Origin: Solirubrobacteraceae bacterium | GTDB taxonomy: Bacteria; Actinomycetota; Thermoleophilia; Solirubrobacterales; Solirubrobacteraceae | Direction: 5' to 3' | Assembly: GCA_024711025.1 (NCBI GenBank) | Contig: JANJTP010000041.1 | Span: forward strand, 45,230-109,229 | Length of the DNA: 64,000 bases | In this document: positions 42,391 through 63,113 of the stretch, in pieces | Layout of the letters: each line of letters begins with the position of its first letter | Numbering within the stretch: position 1 is the first letter of the stretch | Made by a program: the position numbers and the translations under genes | The notes under the pieces: generated by a model | What the model was told of the DNA's origin: nothing | Seen by the model: only the letters and a program-made list of their open reading frames with translations | The model's database searches: none

Positions 42391-43659
42391 ATGAGCACCA
42401 CCGCGCATCGCGCCGTCACCGCGGGCATCGACTACGCCGACCTCTACGCGCGCTGGGAGCGCGGCAACTGGTCGGCGACGGCCATCGACTTCGCCCAGGA
42501 CCGAGTCGACTGGCACGAGCGGATGACCGACGAGCAGCGCCGCAGCGCACTGTGGTTCTACACGCTCTTCTTCCACGGCGAGGACGCCGTCACCGACGGG
42601 CTGTCGCCGTACATCGACGCGGCGCCGCTCGAGGAGCAGAAGTACTTCCTCGCGACCCAGCAGGTCGACGAGGCACGCCACAGCGTCTTCTTCAAGCGCT
42701 TCATGGCCGAGGTCGCCGGCCTCGGCGACGGGACGATGGCCGGCGGCATGCTGGCGACCGAGAGCCTCCTGACGTGGGGGCACCGGAAGATCTTCGGCAA
42801 GCTCGACGAAATGGCCGACCGCCTGCGCGCCGACCGCTCGCTGCCGCAGCTCTGCCGCGCCATCGCGCTCTACCACCTCATCATCGAGGGCGCCCTCGCC
42901 CAGCCCGGCCAGCACTTCATGGAGACGTACCTGGAGCGGATGGACGTGCTGCCCGGCTTCCGCGAGGGCATCCGCCATGTCTCGCTCGACGAGCAGCGCC
43001 ACATCGCGTTCGGCGTGAAGCTGCTCGCCGACGCGTACGCCACCGATCCCGCGATGACCACGGAGGCGATCCGCGAGACGCTTCAGGACGTCGGCGCGCA
43101 CATGGCGGCGATCGCGATGCCGCCGGGCTGGGACGAGACCTATTACACGACGTTCGGCTTCACGTACGACGAGCTGGCCCGCGAGGGCATGCGCCTGCTG
43201 GAGATGCGCCTGAAGGCGATCGGCCTCGACCTGGAGCGGCTCGACCGCTTCCCGATCCCGTTCGACGTACCGTTCGACGAGCGCGCGCGACGCGGACGCG
43301 TGCTGCTCGAAGCCAACCTCACCGGCCCCGACCGGCCCGCCTCACGCGACCGCTATGCGACCGGCGTCATGTTCGACGCGCTGCGCCGCCAGGCCGATCC
43401 GCGGATGGCGAAGCCCGGCACGACGATCGCCTGGGACTTCACCGACGCCGAGCCGTGGCACATCAGCTTCGACGCCGGCCGGGCCACGTCCGGCGCCGGA
43501 ATGACAGAGCACCCCGACCTGCGCCTGAGCATCGGCTTCGACGACTGGGCGGACATGTTCGCCGGGCGCGAGAGCCCACGCCGCCAGCTTCTCACGCGGA
43601 GGCTGCGCCCCCATGGGGATCTGCGGCTGTTCCTGCGGATGCGCCGGATCTTCGCCTGA
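42391..43659 (+). CDS. R2lox-like ferritin-superfamily diiron protein fused to C-terminal SCP2 sterol-carrier domain
   Basis: IDFAQDRVDWHERMTDEQRRSALWFYTLFFHGEDAVTDGL...QQVDEARHSVFF...IIEGALAQPGQ...LDEQRHIAFG; C-terminus AWDFTDAEPWHISFDAGRATSGAGMTEHPDLRLSIGFDDWADMFAGRESPRRQLLTRRLRPHGDLRLFLRM. Confidence 0.82.
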   Translation: MSTTAHRAVTAGIDYADLYARWERGNWSATAIDFAQDRVDWHERMTDEQRRSALWFYTLFFHGEDAVTDGLSPYIDAAPLEEQKYFLATQQVDEARHSVFFKRFMAEVAGLGDGTMAGGMLATESLLTWGHRKIFGKLDEMADRLRADRSLPQLCRAIALYHLIIEGALAQPGQHFMETYLERMDVLPGFREGIRHVSLDEQRHIAFGVKLLADAYATDPAMTTEAIRETLQDVGAHMAAIAMPPGWDETYYTTFGFTYDELAREGMRLLEMRLKAIGLDLERLDRFPIPFDVPFDERARRGRVLLEANLTGPDRPASRDRYATGVMFDALRRQADPRMAKPGTTIAWDFTDAEPWHISFDAGRATSGAGMTEHPDLRLSIGFDDWADMFAGRESPRRQLLTRRLRPHGDLRLFLRMRRIFA

Positions 43660-52495: not shown

Positions 52496-53170
52496 TCAGC
52501 GCGGCGCCGCAGCCGGCTCGAGTATCTCGCGCAGCACCGCGAGCGCCCGCTCGCGGTGCTCGTCGAGTTCCTCGACGAGCCGCTCGACATCCCCCGAGCG
52601 CAGCGCGTCGAGTATCCGGTCGTGCGCGTCGACCGCGGCCTGGCGCTCTGCGGGCAGGTTGTAGTAGAGCGCGCGGTAGGCCTCGGTCGCATCCCACAGC
52701 AGTCGGATCAGGCGCATCGTGTGCGGACGCTCCACCGCGTCGAGGATCCCGAAGTGGAAGCGGCGGTTTGCGGCCAGCTCGGCGGCGACGTCCCCCTCGA
52801 CCGCCGCGTCGACGCAGTCGCGCGCGGCCGCGTCGATCCGCGCCAGCGCCTCTTCGTCGAGTGCCGGAAGCGCGCGGCGAGCGGCGCGCGACTCGAGGAT
52901 CGCGCGCAGCTCGTAGATCTCCTCGAGGTCCTCGATCCTCAGCTCCGTCACGACGTACCCGCGCCGGGGCAGGTACGTGAGCTGCCCCTCCTGCTCGAGG
53001 ACGCGCAGCGCCTCGCGGACCGGGACGACGCTGGCGCCGACCGCCTCGGCGACATCCTCCTGGACGACCTTGCGCCCGGGGCGAAGCTCGCCGGAGACGA
53101 TCGCCGCCCGGAGCCAGTCGACGGCGTGCTCCTGCGCAGTCGGTGAGCGCCGCGATGGCGCGCGGCTCAC
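52496..53170 (-). CDS. GntR-family regulator (FCD domain)
   Basis: HAVDWLRAAIVSGELRPGRKVVQEDVAEAVGASVVPVREALRVLEQEGQLTYLPRRGYVVTEL... FCD; GTG start overlapping stop of upstream dehydrogenase. Confidence 0.9.
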   Translation of the reverse strand: MSRAPSRRSPTAQEHAVDWLRAAIVSGELRPGRKVVQEDVAEAVGASVVPVREALRVLEQEGQLTYLPRRGYVVTELRIEDLEEIYELRAILESRAARRALPALDEEALARIDAAARDCVDAAVEGDVAAELAANRRFHFGILDAVERPHTMRLIRLLWDATEAYRALYYNLPAERQAAVDAHDRILDALRSGDVERLVEELDEHRERALAVLREILEPAAAPR

Positions 53171-54354
53171 CGGAACGCCTGGATCCCGGTCAGCGCACCG
53201 CCGACGACGAGCGCGTGCACGTCCGCCGTCCCCTCGTACGTCACGACCGACTCGAGGTTGTTCATGTGCCGGATGACCGGGTACTCGAGCGTCACGCCGT
53301 TGGCGCCGAGCACCTGGCGCGCGGTCCGGGCCACGTCCAGCGCCGCGTTGACGTTGCCGAGCTTGCCCATGCTCACGTGCTCCGGCCGCAGGACGCCCGC
53401 GTCCTTCATCCGCCCCAGGTGCAGCGAGAGCAGCGTCGCGCGGTTCACCTCGAGCGCCATCGTCGCCAGCTTCTGCTGCTGGATCTGGAACGAGGCGATC
53501 GGCCGGTCGAACTGCACGCGCTCCTTGCTGTACTCGAGCGCCGCCTCGAAGCAGGCGCGGGCGGCGCCCGCCGCTCCCCAGACGATCCCGTAGCGCGCCT
53601 CGTTCAGGCACGACAGCGGGCCCTTGAGCGAGGTGGCCTCGGGCAGCAGCGCCTCCGCGGGAAGACGCACGTCGTCGAGCAGCAGCTCGCTGGTGACCGA
53701 GGCGCGGAGCGAGAGCTTGCGATGGATGTCCTGCGTCGTGAAGCCCGGCGTGTCGCGCGGCACCAGGAAGCCGCGGACGCCCTCGTCGGTGCTCGCCCAG
53801 ACGATCGCCACGTCGGAGACCGAGCCGTTGGTGATCCACATCTTCTGGCCGTGGAGGATCCAGTCGCTCCCGTCGCGCCGCGCGCGGGTGCGCATCGAGC
53901 CCGGGTCGGAGCCGGAGTCGGGCTCGGTCAGCCCGAAGCAGCCGATCGCCTCGCCGGCTGCCATCCGCGGCAGCCACTCCTGCTTCTGCTCCTCCGAGCC
54001 CCAGCGCCAGATCGCGAACATCGCGAGCGACCCCTGGACCGAGACGAGGCTGCGCACGCCGCTGTCTCCGGCCTCGAGCTCCATGCACGCCAGTCCATAG
54101 GCGGTGGCGCTCGCACCGGCGCAGCCGTAGCCGGTCAGGTGCATGCCCAGGAGGCCGAGCTTGCCGAGCTCGGGGGCGAGCTCACCCGGCAGGATCGCGT
54201 CCTCGAACCACTCGCCGACGTTCGGCACGACGCGGTCCCCCACCCATGCGCGGACGGTGTCTCGGATCATCCGCTCCTCGTCGGAGAGGAGGCGGTCGAT
54301 ATCGAGGTAGTCGGTGGGCTTGAGGGGCGCCTTGACCGTCGCGTGCGAAGACAT
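53167..54354 (-). CDS. Acyl-CoA dehydrogenase (glutaryl-CoA dehydrogenase-like)
   Basis: GCFGLTEPDSGSDPGSMRTRARRDGSDWILHGQKMWITNGSVSDVAIVWA...GANGVTLEYPVIRHMNNLESVVTYEGTADVH. Confidence 0.92.
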   Translation of the reverse strand: MSSHATVKAPLKPTDYLDIDRLLSDEERMIRDTVRAWVGDRVVPNVGEWFEDAILPGELAPELGKLGLLGMHLTGYGCAGASATAYGLACMELEAGDSGVRSLVSVQGSLAMFAIWRWGSEEQKQEWLPRMAAGEAIGCFGLTEPDSGSDPGSMRTRARRDGSDWILHGQKMWITNGSVSDVAIVWASTDEGVRGFLVPRDTPGFTTQDIHRKLSLRASVTSELLLDDVRLPAEALLPEATSLKGPLSCLNEARYGIVWGAAGAARACFEAALEYSKERVQFDRPIASFQIQQQKLATMALEVNRATLLSLHLGRMKDAGVLRPEHVSMGKLGNVNAALDVARTARQVLGANGVTLEYPVIRHMNNLESVVTYEGTADVHALVVGGALTGIQAFR

Positions 54355-54397
54355 GCCGATCCTTTCTTATAAATTCTAAGGACGGCAGCCTAGCGCA

Positions 54398-54515
54398 CGC
54401 CTCCCGCCCGTGCACGGGCGGGAAGGCGCTCACCCGTGGTGGACGTCGGGCGCGCCCACCCGTGGTGGACGTCGAGCGGAACCACGCCTCCCGCCCGCGC
54501 ACGGGCGGGAAGGCG
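54398..54515. repeat. Nested repeat: 31-bp palindrome-bearing repeat flanking an 18-bp direct repeat pair
   Basis: CGCCTCCCGCCCG(T/C)GCACGGGCGGGAAGGCG at 54398-54428 and 54485-54515; CACCCGTGGTGGACGTCG at 54431-54448 and 54457-54474. Confidence 0.9.
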
Positions 54516-54551
54516 GGGCCCGGCGCCGCGCGCGCCGGGCCGTCGTCCGTC

Positions 54552-55604
<1,053 letters not shown>

Positions 55605-55654
55605 CTACCCAGCAGGCGCTCGCGATCGCCGCGCCGCCCTGGGAGACTCGCACG

Positions 55655-57343
55655 ATGCGAGCGATCGGTGGCAACGCCATCCGACCGGCCGGCGACGGCG
55701 CGGCGCTGGTCACGCACGACGTGGCCAACCAGCCGCCGCCGCTCACCGGGCGCAACCTGTTCGAGGACGACCGTCCGCTCGCCGAGGCGGTCGAGCGCGA
55801 GGGCGCGGCGTGGGCGCTCGGGATGCTGAGCGAGGCCGGGACGTTCTGGGGCGGGGAGCCCCAGCGCTGGGGCGAGCAGGCCAACCGGCGGCCGCCGACG
55901 CTGCAGACCCACGACCGCTGGGGCAACCGCGTCGACCTCGTCGAGTACGACGCGAGCTACCACGAGCTGATGGCCGCCGGAATCGCCCGCGAGCTGCACT
56001 GCGGTCCCTGGCGCACGCCGCGCGCGGGCGCGCACGTCGCCCGCGCGGCGCAGTTCGTCCTAGCGGGCCAGGCCGAGGCCGGCTTCCTGTGCCCCACGAC
56101 GATGACGTTCGCCGCGGTCCCCGCCCTGCGCGCGACACCGCGAGTCGCCTCGGAGTGGGAGCCGCTGCTGACCGCGACCGGGTACGACCCGCGGCTGGAG
56201 CCGGCGGTGGAGAAGGGATCGGCCACCTGCGGCATGGCGATGACCGAGAAGCAGGGGGGCTCGGACGTACGCGCCAACACCACGCGCGCCCGCGCGCTGG
56301 GCGTCGGCGGACCCGGCGAGGAGTACGAGCTGACGGGCCACAAGTGGTTCTGCTCGGCCCCGATGAGCGACCTGTTCCTCGTGCTCGCGCAGAGCGACGA
56401 GGGGCTCTCGTGCTTCGCGCTGCCTAACGTGCTGCCCGACGGCTCGCGCAACGCGATGCGCATCCAGCGGCTGAAGGACAAGCTCGGCAACCGCTCGAAC
56501 GCCTCGAGCGAGGTCGAGTATCACGGAGCATGGGCGCGGATGGTCGGCGAGCCCGGCCGCGGCGTCGCGACGATCCTCGAGATGGTCGGCCACACGCGGC
56601 TCGACTGCACGCTCGGCGCCGCGGCGGCACTGCGCGCCCAGGTCGCCCACGCCACCTGGCACGCCGCCCACCGCTCGGCGTTCGGGAGGCGGCTCGCCGA
56701 CCAGCCGCTGATGCGCAACGTACTCGCCGACCTCGCGCTCGAGGCGGAGGCCGCGACGGCCATCGCGCTGCGCCTCGCGCGCGCCTACGATCGCGCCGCA
56801 GCCGACCCCGCCGAGGCGCTGCTGCGGCGTTTGGCGACGGCCGTCGCCAAGTACCACGTCTGCAAGCGAGTGCCGGAGCACGCCTACGAGGCGATGGAGG
56901 TGCTCGGCGGCGCAGGCTACGTCGAGGACTCGGGACTGCCGCGCCTCTACCGCGAGGCGCCGCTGAACGCCATCTGGGAGGGGTCAGGCAACGTGATCGC
57001 GCTCGACGCGCTGCGTGCGCTGACGCGCGAGCCGGCGGCGCTCGACGCGCTGCTCGCCGAGATCGAGCTGGCGGCCGGGGCCGACGCGCGCCTCGACGCC
57101 TTCGTCCGGTCGCTGCACGCCGAGCTCTCAGGCCCCGCGACGCTGGAGGCGCGGGCACGGCGCCTGGTCGAGCGGATGGCGCTGGCACTGCAGGGCTCGC
57201 TGCTCGTGCGCCACGCGCCGGCGGCCGTGGCCGATGCCTTCTGCGCCGGCCGCCTGGCGCCGGACGGGCTCGCCGGCTACGGAACGCTGCCCGCCGGCGT
57301 GGACGTCGAGGCGATCCTCGAGCGCCACACTCCGGCGGGCTAG
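55655..57343 (+). CDS. Acyl-CoA dehydrogenase, AidB-like
   Basis: CGMAMTEKQGGSDVRANTTRARALG...YELTGHKWFCSAPMSDLFLVLAQ...MEVLGGAGYVEDSGLPRLYREAPLNAIWEGSGNVIALD. Confidence 0.9.
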   Translation: MRAIGGNAIRPAGDGAALVTHDVANQPPPLTGRNLFEDDRPLAEAVEREGAAWALGMLSEAGTFWGGEPQRWGEQANRRPPTLQTHDRWGNRVDLVEYDASYHELMAAGIARELHCGPWRTPRAGAHVARAAQFVLAGQAEAGFLCPTTMTFAAVPALRATPRVASEWEPLLTATGYDPRLEPAVEKGSATCGMAMTEKQGGSDVRANTTRARALGVGGPGEEYELTGHKWFCSAPMSDLFLVLAQSDEGLSCFALPNVLPDGSRNAMRIQRLKDKLGNRSNASSEVEYHGAWARMVGEPGRGVATILEMVGHTRLDCTLGAAAALRAQVAHATWHAAHRSAFGRRLADQPLMRNVLADLALEAEAATAIALRLARAYDRAAADPAEALLRRLATAVAKYHVCKRVPEHAYEAMEVLGGAGYVEDSGLPRLYREAPLNAIWEGSGNVIALDALRALTREPAALDALLAEIELAAGADARLDAFVRSLHAELSGPATLEARARRLVERMALALQGSLLVRHAPAAVADAFCAGRLAPDGLAGYGTLPAGVDVEAILERHTPAG

Positions 57344-59409: not shown

Positions 59410-61104
59410 ATGCCAGCACATGACATCCTGATCATCGGCGCCGGCCTCGCCGGCCAGCGCGCCGCTCTCGCCGCGGCCCGCAAGGGCGCCACGGTCGCGA
59501 TCATGAGCAAGGTCCACCCGGTCCGCTCGCACTCGGTCGCGGCCGCCGGCGGCATCAACGCCGCGATCAGCCCGGCCGACGACTGGCGCTCGCACGCCTA
59601 CGACACCGTCAAGGGGTCGGACTTCCTCGGCGACCAGGACGCGATCGAGATCATGTGCCGCGAGGCACCGGACGAGGTCCTGCACCTCGAGCACATCGGC
59701 GTGACCTTCCATCGCAACGAGAAGGGCGAGATGGACCTTCGCGCCTTCGGCGGGGCGTCGATGAAGCGCACCGCGTACGTCGCGGACATCACCGGCCAGG
59801 CGCTGCTGCACGTGCTCTACGAGCAGCTCATGAAGCATCACGAGGTGATCGACCGCTACGAGGAGTGGTTCGTCACCTCGCTGGTGCTCGACGACGCGGG
59901 CAGCTGCATCGGGGCCGTCGCGCGCAACATCCGCGACGGCCACATGGAGACCTTCTCGGCGAAGAACGTGATCCTCGCGTCGGGCGGCGCCGGACAGTGC
60001 TTCAAGCCGACGACGAACGCGCTGATCTGCACCGGCGACGGGATCGCGCAGGCGTACCGCGCCGGCGCGCCGCTGATGGACATGGAGATGATCCAGTACC
60101 ACCCGACGACGCTCGTCGAGAACGGGTTCCTGATCACCGAGGGCGCCCGCGGCGAGGGCGCCCATCTCCTCAACGCTAGCGGTGAGCGCTTCATGGAGAA
60201 GTACGCGCCGAACAAGATGGAGCTCGCCTCGCGCGACGTCGTCTCGCGCGCCGAGCAGACGGAGATCAACGAGGGGCGCGGCGTCGGCCCGGACGGCGTC
60301 GGCATCTACCTCGACATCACCGTCGTCCCGAAGAAGCGCACGCTCGAGGCGCTGCGCGAGATCGTCAACATCGGCAAGGACTTCGCCGGCGTCGACATCA
60401 CCCGCGAGCCGATCATGATCCGCCCGGGAATGCACTACATCATGGGCGGCGTCAAGACCGACGTCGACGGCGCCACGTCGATCCCCGGCCTCTACGCCGC
60501 CGGCGAGGTCGCCTGCGTCTCCGTCCACGGCGGCAACCGCCTCGGCGCCAACTCGCTGCTCGACACGCTGATCTTCGGCCGCCGCGCGGGCGAGCACGCC
60601 GCCGACCGCGCCACCTCGATGGCGATGCCGCAGGCCGGCACGGGCGCTCAGCGCCACGACGAGCAGCTCCTCGGCGAGATCCTCGCCCGGCCCAAGACCG
60701 GCCGGCGGATCAGCGAGATCAAGGACGAGCTCGGCACGACGATGAACCGCTACGTCGCCGTCTACCGCGAGGAGGAGGGCCTGCGCACGGCCCACGAGAC
60801 GGTTCGCCGCCTCAAGGACGAAGCGCAGACCGCCTACGTCGACGACAAGGGCACCATCTTCAACCAGGACGTCCTCGGAGCCGTCGAGCTCGACTACATG
60901 CTCGACTGCGCCGAGGCGATCGTCGTCGCCGCGATCGAGCGCAAGGAGTCGCGCGGCGCCCAGTTCCGCGTCGACTACCCGGGCCGCAACGACGCCGAGT
61001 GGCTCAAGCACATCGACATCTCGCGCGACGGCGACGACACCCCCGCAGTCTCCTACTCCCCGGTGACCATCACCCAATGGCAGCCGGAGGAGCGCAAGTA
61101 CTAG
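59410..61104 (+). CDS. sdhA: Succinate dehydrogenase/fumarate reductase flavoprotein subunit
   Basis: [49 protein letters not shown]...[38 protein letters not shown]...[13 protein letters not shown]. Confidence 0.96.
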
Positions 61105-61126
61105 GACCCCGATCGAGGACCTGACG

Positions 61127-62185
61127 ATGGCCGAGTTCAAGCTCCGCATCCGCCGCTACGACCCCGAGTCCGGCAAGCCGCCGTACTGGGACGAGCACAC
61201 CGTCGAGCTCGAGCCGCACCGCTCGGTGCTGGAGGGCCTGCTGCAGGCGAAGGGCACCACCGACGGCTCGATCGGCGTGCGCTGCTCCTGCCGCGCCGCG
61301 ATCTGCGGCTCGTGCGGGGTGCGCATCAACGGCCGTCCCGGCCTGGCCTGCCACACGCACCTCGACGACGCGCAGTACCGGGCCAAGGACGGCGTGATCG
61401 AGGTCGAGCCGATGGGCAACATGCCCGTCATCAAGGACCTGATCGTGGACATGGACGCCGTCCACTGGAAGAAGGTCCAGCGCGTCACGCCGTGGCTCAT
61501 CAACAAGGAGCCGGTCCCCGAGCGCGAGTACATCGTCCCGCGCGAGTCGATGATCGACGTTACGCAGTCGATGGCGTGCATCCAGTGCGGCGCCTGCGTC
61601 TCGGACTGCCTGACCTTGGAGGTCGACCCGCTGTTCGTCGGCCCCGCCGCGCTCGCCAAGACCTACCGCTTCGTCGGCGACCCGCGCGACGCCGCGCACG
61701 AGCAGCGCCTGAAGGACCTCGCCGAGGACCCGCACGGCATCTACTCCTGCACGCACTGCTTCCAGTGCATCGAGGCCTGCCCGAAGGGCGTGGCCCCGAT
61801 GAGCCAGATCATGCGACTGCGACGGATCGCGGGCAGCGACTTCGCCATCAACGACCGCAACAACGGCTACCGCCACGAGCACGCCTACGTGGAGAACATC
61901 CGTCGCAACGGCCTGCTCCACGAGGCGGACCTGCTGCCCGACTCGTACGGCGGCAAGTTCCACCCGCGGGCGGTGCCCGCGCTGCTCAGCTCGCTGCCGG
62001 CGATCAGCAAGGCGCTGCTGCGCCGCAAGGTCACCCCCGCAAAGGCACTGCTGCACCCGCACAAGGCGCCGGACGGCGTGAAGCGGATCTACGACATCGT
62101 CGAGGGCCGCGACGAGCGCATCGAGCTCAATCTGTACATCACGGGCACGGACGAGGACAACGCCGAGCCCGTCGTGGCGTCCTAG
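61127..62185 (+). CDS. sdhB: Succinate dehydrogenase/fumarate reductase iron-sulfur subunit
   Basis: GVRCSCRAAICGSCGVRINGRPGLAC...CIQCGACVSDCLTLEV...CTHCFQCIEACPKGV. Confidence 0.95.
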   Translation: MAEFKLRIRRYDPESGKPPYWDEHTVELEPHRSVLEGLLQAKGTTDGSIGVRCSCRAAICGSCGVRINGRPGLACHTHLDDAQYRAKDGVIEVEPMGNMPVIKDLIVDMDAVHWKKVQRVTPWLINKEPVPEREYIVPRESMIDVTQSMACIQCGACVSDCLTLEVDPLFVGPAALAKTYRFVGDPRDAAHEQRLKDLAEDPHGIYSCTHCFQCIEACPKGVAPMSQIMRLRRIAGSDFAINDRNNGYRHEHAYVENIRRNGLLHEADLLPDSYGGKFHPRAVPALLSSLPAISKALLRRKVTPAKALLHPHKAPDGVKRIYDIVEGRDERIELNLYITGTDEDNAEPVVAS

Positions 62186-62198
62186 GAGGTCGCTGACG

Positions 62199-63113
62199 AT
62201 GAAGGTCGCCTACTGGCCCGGCTGCGTTAGCCGTGGCTTCACCCCGGAGCTGCACGGCTCGATGGCGAAGGTCGCTCCGCTGCTCGACATCGAGCTCATC
62301 GAGCTCGACCGCGCCAACTGCTGCGGCTCCGGCGTGATCGCCGAGCACAGCCAGGAGCTCGCCGACACGCTCAACGCACGGACGTTCGCGCTCGCCCAGC
62401 AGGTGCAGGGCGCCACGCTGATGATGAACATCTGCTCGACCTGTCAGGGCGCGCAGTCGGAGTGCCAGCAGCGTCTCGACGCCAACGCCGACTACCGCGC
62501 GACGGTCAACGAGACGCTCAAGACCTCCGATGGCCTCGAGTACTCGGGCGGCATCGTCAACAAGAACTTCCTCTGGGTGCTCGTCGAGGAGATCGGCCTC
62601 GACAGGCTCCGCTCGCTGGTGAAGCGCCCGCTGACCGACCTCAAGGTCGGGCCCTTCTACGGCTGCTACATCGTGCGCCCCACCGATCGGCTCGAGATCG
62701 ATCGCGATCGCCCGCGCGACCAGTACCTCGGGATGGTCATCGAGGCGCTCGGCGGTACCGTCATCGACTACGCCGGCACCCACAAGTGCTGCGGCTTCCC
62801 GATCATCACCATGAACAAGCAGGCCTCGCTCCAGCAGGCGGGCCGGCACCTCGGTGACGCGGTCGACGCCGATGCCGACTGCCTCGTGACTCCGTGCCCG
62901 CTGTGCCACCTGAACCTCGACCTGCAGCAGCCGCTCGCCGAGCGCGAGGTCGGCCGCGAGCTGAACATGCCGGTGCTGCACCTGCCCCAGCTCGTCGGGC
63001 TGGCGCTCGGCCTGCAGCCCAAGGAGCTCGGCCTGCAGCGCCACGTCGTCAAGCCGACATCGGTCATCAACTGGTCCGAGGCCGTCATCGCGAGCGTCCC
63101 GGCGACCGCCTGA
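62199..63113 (+). CDS. Heterodisulfide reductase subunit B-like (CCG-domain) protein; class-E SDH membrane-associated subunit
   Basis: Two cysteine-rich CCG clusters: YWPGC...NCCGSG...CSTCQ and YGCYI...CCGFP...CPLC; operon with sdhAB. Confidence 0.9.
   Translation: MKVAYWPGCVSRGFTPELHGSMAKVAPLLDIELIELDRANCCGSGVIAEHSQELADTLNARTFALAQQVQGATLMMNICSTCQGAQSECQQRLDANADYRATVNETLKTSDGLEYSGGIVNKNFLWVLVEEIGLDRLRSLVKRPLTDLKVGPFYGCYIVRPTDRLEIDRDRPRDQYLGMVIEALGGTVIDYAGTHKCCGFPIITMNKQASLQQAGRHLGDAVDADADCLVTPCPLCHLNLDLQQPLAEREVGRELNMPVLHLPQLVGLALGLQPKELGLQRHVVKPTSVINWSEAVIASVPATA

What the first reader, a model, noticed from the sequence alone, without database searches (positions are those of the whole stretch)
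42391..43659. R2lox-like diiron oxidase fused to an SCP2 lipid-binding domain
The N-terminal ~300 aa resemble R2-like ligand-binding oxidases and keep diiron-ligand-like motifs (GEDAVTDG, DEARH, EG, DEQRH). The C-terminal ~80 aa look like an SCP2 sterol-carrier domain (WDFTDAEPWHISFD... RRQLLTRRLRPHGDLRLFLRM). Fusing an oxidase whose family binds a long-chain fatty-acid-like ligand to a lipid carrier domain suggests an undescribed lipid-oxidizing enzyme that delivers its own substrate.
Basis: partly seen in the sequence, partly recalled or inferred. Interest (0 to 1): 0.68.

Follow-up and report, generated by a model that had tools for sequence, protein, structure and literature searches.

The report
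Oxygen-activating enzyme fused to lipid carrier
One bacterial gene joins a two-metal, oxygen-using enzyme of the R2lox type to a lipid-carrying SCP2 domain; the fusion is conserved in dozens of related bacteria and appears undescribed, and it offers a concrete way to find out what this puzzling enzyme family oxidises.

Summary
ORF 42391-43659 (+, 422 aa) has an R2-type dimetal helical domain (PF00268, 8.8e-15) and a C-terminal SCP2 domain (PF02036, 2.7e-9), both above Pfam cut-offs. It is not an artefact: the same single-frame fusion occurs in 61 sampled genomes of the host's order and 13 outside its class. The two domains' divergences correlate (r = 0.80), and the fused proteins form one clade (95/80). 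All six metal ligands and the Val/Tyr cross-link pair of R2lox are kept here and in 49 of 53 fused proteins.

It is not a canonical R2lox. It lies outside a 100/100-supported canonical split, scores below NCBIfam R2lox cut-offs, and has glutamine for the R2lox cavity tyrosine (Gk Y175) in 49/49 intact fusions. It is not a ribonucleotide-reductase subunit: it is the genome's only R2-type gene, and the only RNR found is B12-dependent NrdJ.

Outside the host's class, the gene sits beside acyl-CoA dehydrogenase genes at 9 loci, pointing to acyl-lipid metabolism; in five of these the oxidase site has decayed.

Best reading: an O2-dependent Mn/Fe or diiron acyl-lipid oxidase carrying its own lipid-binding domain. 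Catalysis, metal and substrate are inferred.

The parts
42391..43659 (+). R2lox-like/SCP2 fusion gene, 422 aa
   Evidence: one frame in >70 genomes
42430..43242 (+). dimetal R2-type oxidase domain, residues 14-284
   Evidence: PF00268; phmmer to R2lox structures; Foldseek to R2lox from a low-confidence model
42580..42591 (+). E64 (metal ligand, Gk E69) to V67 (cross-link valine, Gk V72)
   Evidence: alignment with GkR2loxI; kept in 49/53 fused
42670..42681 (+). E94 and H97, metal ligands (Gk E102, H105)
42871..42888 (+). Y161 (cross-link tyrosine, Gk Y162) and E166 (metal ligand, Gk E167)
42898..42900 (+). A170, counterpart of the Gk tunnel residue A171
   Evidence: role of A171 from PMC6399176
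42910..42912 (+). Q174, where canonical R2lox has the conserved cavity Tyr (Gk Y175)
   Evidence: 49/49 intact fused = Q; 12/13 canonical = Y; PMC4118035
42991..43002 (+). E201 and H204, metal ligands (Gk E202, H205)
43243..43353 (+). inter-domain linker, residues 285-321 (approximate)
   Evidence: between the Pfam domains; low pLDDT at 282-319
43390..43653 (+). SCP2 domain (Pfam bounds, residues 334-421)

Best explanation
An O2-dependent dimetal oxidase (Mn/Fe or Fe/Fe) of an uncharacterised sister group of R2lox, permanently joined to an SCP2 lipid-binding domain. The SCP2 domain holds a long-chain lipid (an acyl chain, possibly acyl-CoA) and presents it to the dimetal site, which performs a two-electron oxidation (hydroxylation or desaturation). 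Shown here: both domains, all ligand and cross-link residues, conservation, one clade of fused proteins, and acyl-CoA dehydrogenase neighbours in one lineage. Inferred: metal content, cross-link formation, lipid hand-over between the domains, reaction type and substrate.
For: Both Pfam domains above cut-off. Six ligands plus the Val/Tyr pair kept in 49/53 fused proteins and 5/5 solved R2lox. The N-terminal ligand is Glu, as in R2lox and R2c and unlike the Asp of class Ia/Ib R2 (PMC4118035). The tunnel residue Gk A171 is kept as A170. SCP2 profile matches lipid-binding SCP2 domains including MFE-2 and the C-terminal domains of alkyl sulfatases. Single-clade fusion (95/80; 94% of bootstrap trees), with domain divergences correlated, r = 0.80, 0/999 permutations as high. 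Acyl-CoA dehydrogenase gene(s) directly beside the fusion at 9 loci in 8 genera, against 11-22 such genes per genome. Known R2lox bind a fatty acid at the metals (PMC6399176), and GkR2loxI is reported to attack C10-C22 alkanes (PMC10867098).
Against: No adjacent electron-transfer partner or lipid gene recognised at the window locus; in many genomes of the host's order the gene sits between glyS and lon as stable synteny. Four of 53 fused proteins in the set (and a fifth found at L140), all in family f13, have lost E69/Y162-equivalents while keeping SCP2, so some fusions may not be oxidases. The canonical cavity tyrosine is missing. The alkane report is weak: the ligand double mutant kept most activity (PMC10867098). 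Structure models were low confidence (pLDDT 52 and 46).
Confidence: 0.55

Rival explanations
1. The substrate is an isoprenoid lipid or quinone rather than an acyl chain: the SCP2 domain plays the role of UbiJ and the R2-like domain acts as an O2-dependent hydroxylase, as in ubiquinone synthesis.
For: SCP2 domain of UbiJ is proposed to bind the polyisoprenoid tail of quinone intermediates in the Ubi metabolon (PMC9499169); dimetal ferritin-fold hydroxylases act on quinones in ubiquinone synthesis (COQ7, own knowledge).
Against: Neighbours in family f13 are acyl-CoA dehydrogenases; no quinone-biosynthesis gene among the neighbours scanned.
Confidence: 0.15
2. A lipid sensor or carrier in which the R2 half is structural, with the metal site kept by history.
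For: Some fused proteins lost E69, Y162 and in part H105 equivalents yet keep SCP2 and the acyl-CoA dehydrogenase neighbours.
Against: 49/53 keep all nine checked active-site positions exactly although the oxidase domains differ at 47% of positions on average, which indicates purifying selection on the site.
Confidence: 0.12
3. A canonical R2lox whose extra domain is incidental.
For: Same ligands and Val/Tyr pair; R2lox structures are the best matches in PDB by sequence and by fold.
Against: Canonical R2lox form a separate 100/100 split; Q174 for Y175, H162 for N163, Q90 for F98, R96 for K104, W22 for the usual Gly at Gk position 27 are fixed in the fused clade; below NCBIfam R2lox cut-offs.
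Confidence: 0.1
4. A class I ribonucleotide reductase small subunit (the usual automatic annotation).
For: PF00268 hit; relatives on Streptomyces plasmids are annotated that way.
Against: Only R2-family gene in the genome; the only large subunit found is vitamin B12-dependent NrdJ, which needs no R2 protein; the C-terminus is an SCP2 domain instead of an R1-binding tail.
Confidence: 0.02

Closest known systems
R2-like ligand-binding oxidase, R2lox (MtR2lox 3ee4, GkR2loxI 4hr0, SeR2lox 7qbp, SaR2lox 6qrz/7qbk)
   Same: R2 fold, six ligands, Val/Tyr cross-link residues, tunnel Ala
   Different: 25-34% identity; outside the canonical clade; Gln for the conserved cavity Tyr175; carries a C-terminal SCP2 domain
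SCP2 domains appended to lipid enzymes (MFE-2, SCPx thiolase, alkyl sulfatase SdsA1)
   Same: C-terminal SCP2-fold domain joined to an enzyme that acts on long-chain lipids; sequence matches
   Different: Those enzymes are hydratase/dehydrogenase, thiolase or sulfatase; no dimetal oxidase partner found in the papers searched
UbiJ SCP2 protein of the Ubi metabolon
   Same: SCP2 domain proposed to hold a lipid within a complex of lipid-modifying enzymes
   Different: Separate polypeptides, different hydroxylases, quinone substrates
GkR2loxI alkane monooxygenase (GK2771)
   Same: Same metal-site residues; proposed long-chain hydrocarbon oxidation; gene in a beta-oxidation cluster (PMC10867098)
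   Different: No SCP2 domain; canonical R2lox clade; activity evidence modest

Membership tests
R2lox | Six metal ligands with Glu first (E69, E102, H105, E167, E202, H205) | tested here: met
   E64, E94, H97, E166, E201, H204 by alignment
R2lox | Val72/Tyr162 cross-link residues | tested here: met
   V67 and Y161
R2lox | Cross-link actually formed; Mn/Fe cofactor | not testable with these tools
   needs purified protein
R2lox | Conserved tyrosine lining the ligand cavity (Gk Y175) | tested here: not met
   Q174 in the window and in 49/49 intact fused; feature from PMC4118035
R2lox | Score above an NCBIfam R2lox cut-off | tested here: not met
   best 136.5 bits against 194
R2lox | Falls inside the clade of characterised R2lox | tested here: not met
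   canonical split 100/100 excludes it
R2lox | Binds a long-chain fatty acid at the metal site | not testable with these tools
   only the tunnel Ala (A170) could be checked and is kept
SCP2 family (PF02036) | Pfam gathering score on the C-terminal part | tested here: met
   37.7 bits against 21.3; 22/22 orthologs match
SCP2 family (PF02036) | Binds lipid in the SCP2 pocket | not testable with these tools
   models too poor to judge a pocket
Class I RNR subunit R2 | Co-occurs with a class I large subunit | tested here: not met
   only NrdJ found

The most novel reading that the evidence does not exclude
A new family of self-loading lipid oxygenases: an R2lox-sister dimetal enzyme with a covalently attached lipid carrier, coupled in one lineage to acyl-CoA dehydrogenases, using glutamine in place of the R2lox cavity tyrosine and so possibly a different oxidation chemistry on a defined acyl-lipid substrate.
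Probability: 0.4. Interest if true: 0.75.

Novelty: new variant of a known kind. Interest (0 to 1): 0.58.

Why it matters
The physiological substrate of R2lox has been an open question since its discovery; the fatty acid seen in crystals is presumed to be an expression artefact (PMC4118035), and the one activity claim (alkane oxidation) is weak. A natural fusion to a lipid carrier, conserved in >70 genomes, says independently that this branch of the superfamily handles lipids, and the acyl-CoA dehydrogenase neighbours narrow the guess to acyl chains. The SCP2 domain is also a ready-made handle for pulling the natural substrate out of cells.

Tried and rejected
RNR-subunit reading rejected. Chance or frameshift fusion rejected. 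An apparent unfused member inside the fused clade (L107) proved to be a fusion cut off by its contig end. Viral contigs gave one partial hit at a contig end. No plasmid record covers 80% of the protein. Operon partners in the host's order: none consistent; glyS and lon are synteny, a TetR gene lies close by at some loci. Literature: no held paper mentions R2lox with SCP2 or sterol carrier, but subscription journals are mostly missing from that library, and InterPro architectures could not be queried.

Full report
Observation. The ORF at 42391-43659 (+) encodes 422 aa with coding-like third-position GC of 0.95. Pfam finds Ribonuc_red_sm at residues 17-234 (E 8.8e-15) and SCP2 at 334-421 (E 2.7e-9), both above curated cut-offs. 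The best solved relatives of the first half are R2lox structures. A profile of 22 fused C-terminal parts matches SCP2 domains of human MFE-2 (2.8e-10), nonspecific lipid-transfer protein and, more weakly, the C-terminal domain of alkyl sulfatases; all 22 parts match PF02036 individually.

Distribution. In a class-wide sample of 299 genomes, 61 carry the protein over essentially its full length in one frame (my count from the match table), all within the host's order (four families); the two database relatives found by the search for related loci are 70% and 61% identical. In the phylum sample it recurs full length at 33-43% identity in 13 genomes of two families (f13, f18) outside the host's class; within the order of f13, 12 of 16 sampled genomes have a match. 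Some close relatives lack it (for example G023, same genus, 99% complete), so it is not universal. The host lineage is indicated by the 70% identical protein of a Solirubrobacteraceae MAG (L004).

Active site. Aligned to GkR2loxI, the six ligands E69, E102, H105, E167, E202, H205 are E64, E94, H97, E166, E201, H204, and the cross-link pair V72/Y162 is V67/Y161; the tunnel alanine A171 is A170. The nine-residue signature EVEHYEAEH is identical in 49 of 53 fused proteins and in all five solved R2lox. Four fused paralogs of f13 (L048, L049, L051, L125), and a further one at L140, replace E69 and Y162 equivalents, and some also H105.

Not a canonical R2lox. A tree of the oxidase domain puts characterised R2lox on their own side of a 100/100 branch, and all fused proteins on one side of a 95/80 branch (94% of bootstrap trees), with unfused paralogs between (wider quick tree). 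The fused proteins share fixed differences from canonical R2lox: Q174 for Y175, H162 for N163, Q90 for F98, R96 for K104, and W22 where most canonical members have Gly. Y175 is described as the conserved tyrosine lining the R2lox ligand cavity and a candidate for substrate oxidation (PMC4118035). The protein scores 136.5 bits on the best NCBIfam R2lox model, cut-off 194. So it may work like an R2lox at the metals, but should not be filed as one.

Not a ribonucleotide reductase subunit. It is the only PF00268 protein of the genome, and the only RNR large subunit found is a vitamin B12-dependent NrdJ.

One fusion event. Domain-wise distances among fused proteins correlate (r = 0.80, none of 999 permutations as high), consistent with one old fusion inherited as a unit. 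This test does not remove the effect of shared ancestry and is supportive, not conclusive.

Neighbourhood. In many genomes of the host's order the gene lies in a stable stretch between glyS and lon, here with a small multidrug-resistance transporter gene just upstream; this says nothing about function. In f13, by contrast, the fusion lies directly beside one or two acyl-CoA dehydrogenase genes at 9 of 13 loci of the main f13 branch examined, in 8 genera. Typically one dehydrogenase is divergent and one co-directional, with gaps of about 10-60 bases in L134, L140 and L138. The genomes have only 11-22 such genes each, so the association is not expected by chance, though the genomes are related. 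Four of these loci have an intact oxidase site and five a decayed one. On plasmids, canonical R2lox genes also stand near fatty-acid-CoA ligase, alcohol dehydrogenase and adenylating-enzyme genes.

Mechanism. Most likely the SCP2 domain binds a long-chain lipid and presents it to the O2-activating dimetal site for a two-electron oxidation. Precedent for the parts: R2lox hold a fatty acid at the metals (PMC6399176), have been proposed to be desaturases (PMC4118035), and one is reported as an alkane monooxygenase, although its ligand mutant lost only part of the activity (PMC10867098). SCP2 domains are joined to several lipid enzymes, and UbiJ is proposed to hold polyprenyl lipids for the Ubi enzymes (PMC9499169). 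Metal content, cross-link, lipid transfer and product are inferred.

Novelty. No held paper links R2lox with SCP2 or sterol carrier; the library lacks most subscription papers. The parts are known, the combination and the clade appear uncharacterised: a new variant of a known kind.

Noticed in passing
L048, L049, L051, L125 and L140 (family f13): Fused paralogs that lost E69/Y162-equivalent (some also H105-equivalent) residues but keep SCP2; all five lie beside acyl-CoA dehydrogenase genes (loci L133, L134, L136, L138, L140). Possibly pseudo-oxidases.
   Followed up: partly
L053, L123, L124 (f13) and L052, L107 (f18): Deeper fused branches with intact ligands, 33-36% identical to the window protein; at L139 one lies near short-chain dehydrogenase, aldehyde dehydrogenase and metallophosphatase genes.
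   Followed up: partly
L062:5893-6882 (Streptomyces goshikiensis plasmid): Unfused relative annotated as RNR beta, with Gly and Phe in place of the cross-link Val and Tyr, in a cluster with acyl-CoA dehydrogenase, ketosynthase-like and adenylating enzymes: perhaps a natural-product tailoring oxidase.
   Followed up: no
L127:1039-5148 (own genome, contig C27): B12-dependent ribonucleotide reductase NrdJ appears to carry an intein (TIGR01445 match, extra ~400 residues between the two NrdJ parts).
   Followed up: no
L005: Record titled 'Bifidobacterium breve' MAG is most likely mislabelled: its contig has the same length as G292:C4, a genome of the window's own genus.
   Followed up: partly
59410-63113: FAD/Fe-S/CCG-domain gene trio that looks like a succinate:quinone oxidoreductase with a cysteine-rich (HdrB-like, type E) third subunit.
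   Followed up: no
53167-57343: An acyl-CoA dehydrogenase and an AidB-like acyl-CoA dehydrogenase about 10 kb downstream of the fusion, with a malate/lactate dehydrogenase between them.
   Followed up: no
G250:C26:13836-14165: A 112-codon frame 55% identical to the fused SCP2 domain, apart from the full-length fusion on C48; a free SCP2 copy or an assembly fragment.
   Followed up: no
G258:C1:2033978-2035238: Oxidase and SCP2 parts match in two different frames with a short overlap: a split or frameshifted copy.
   Followed up: no
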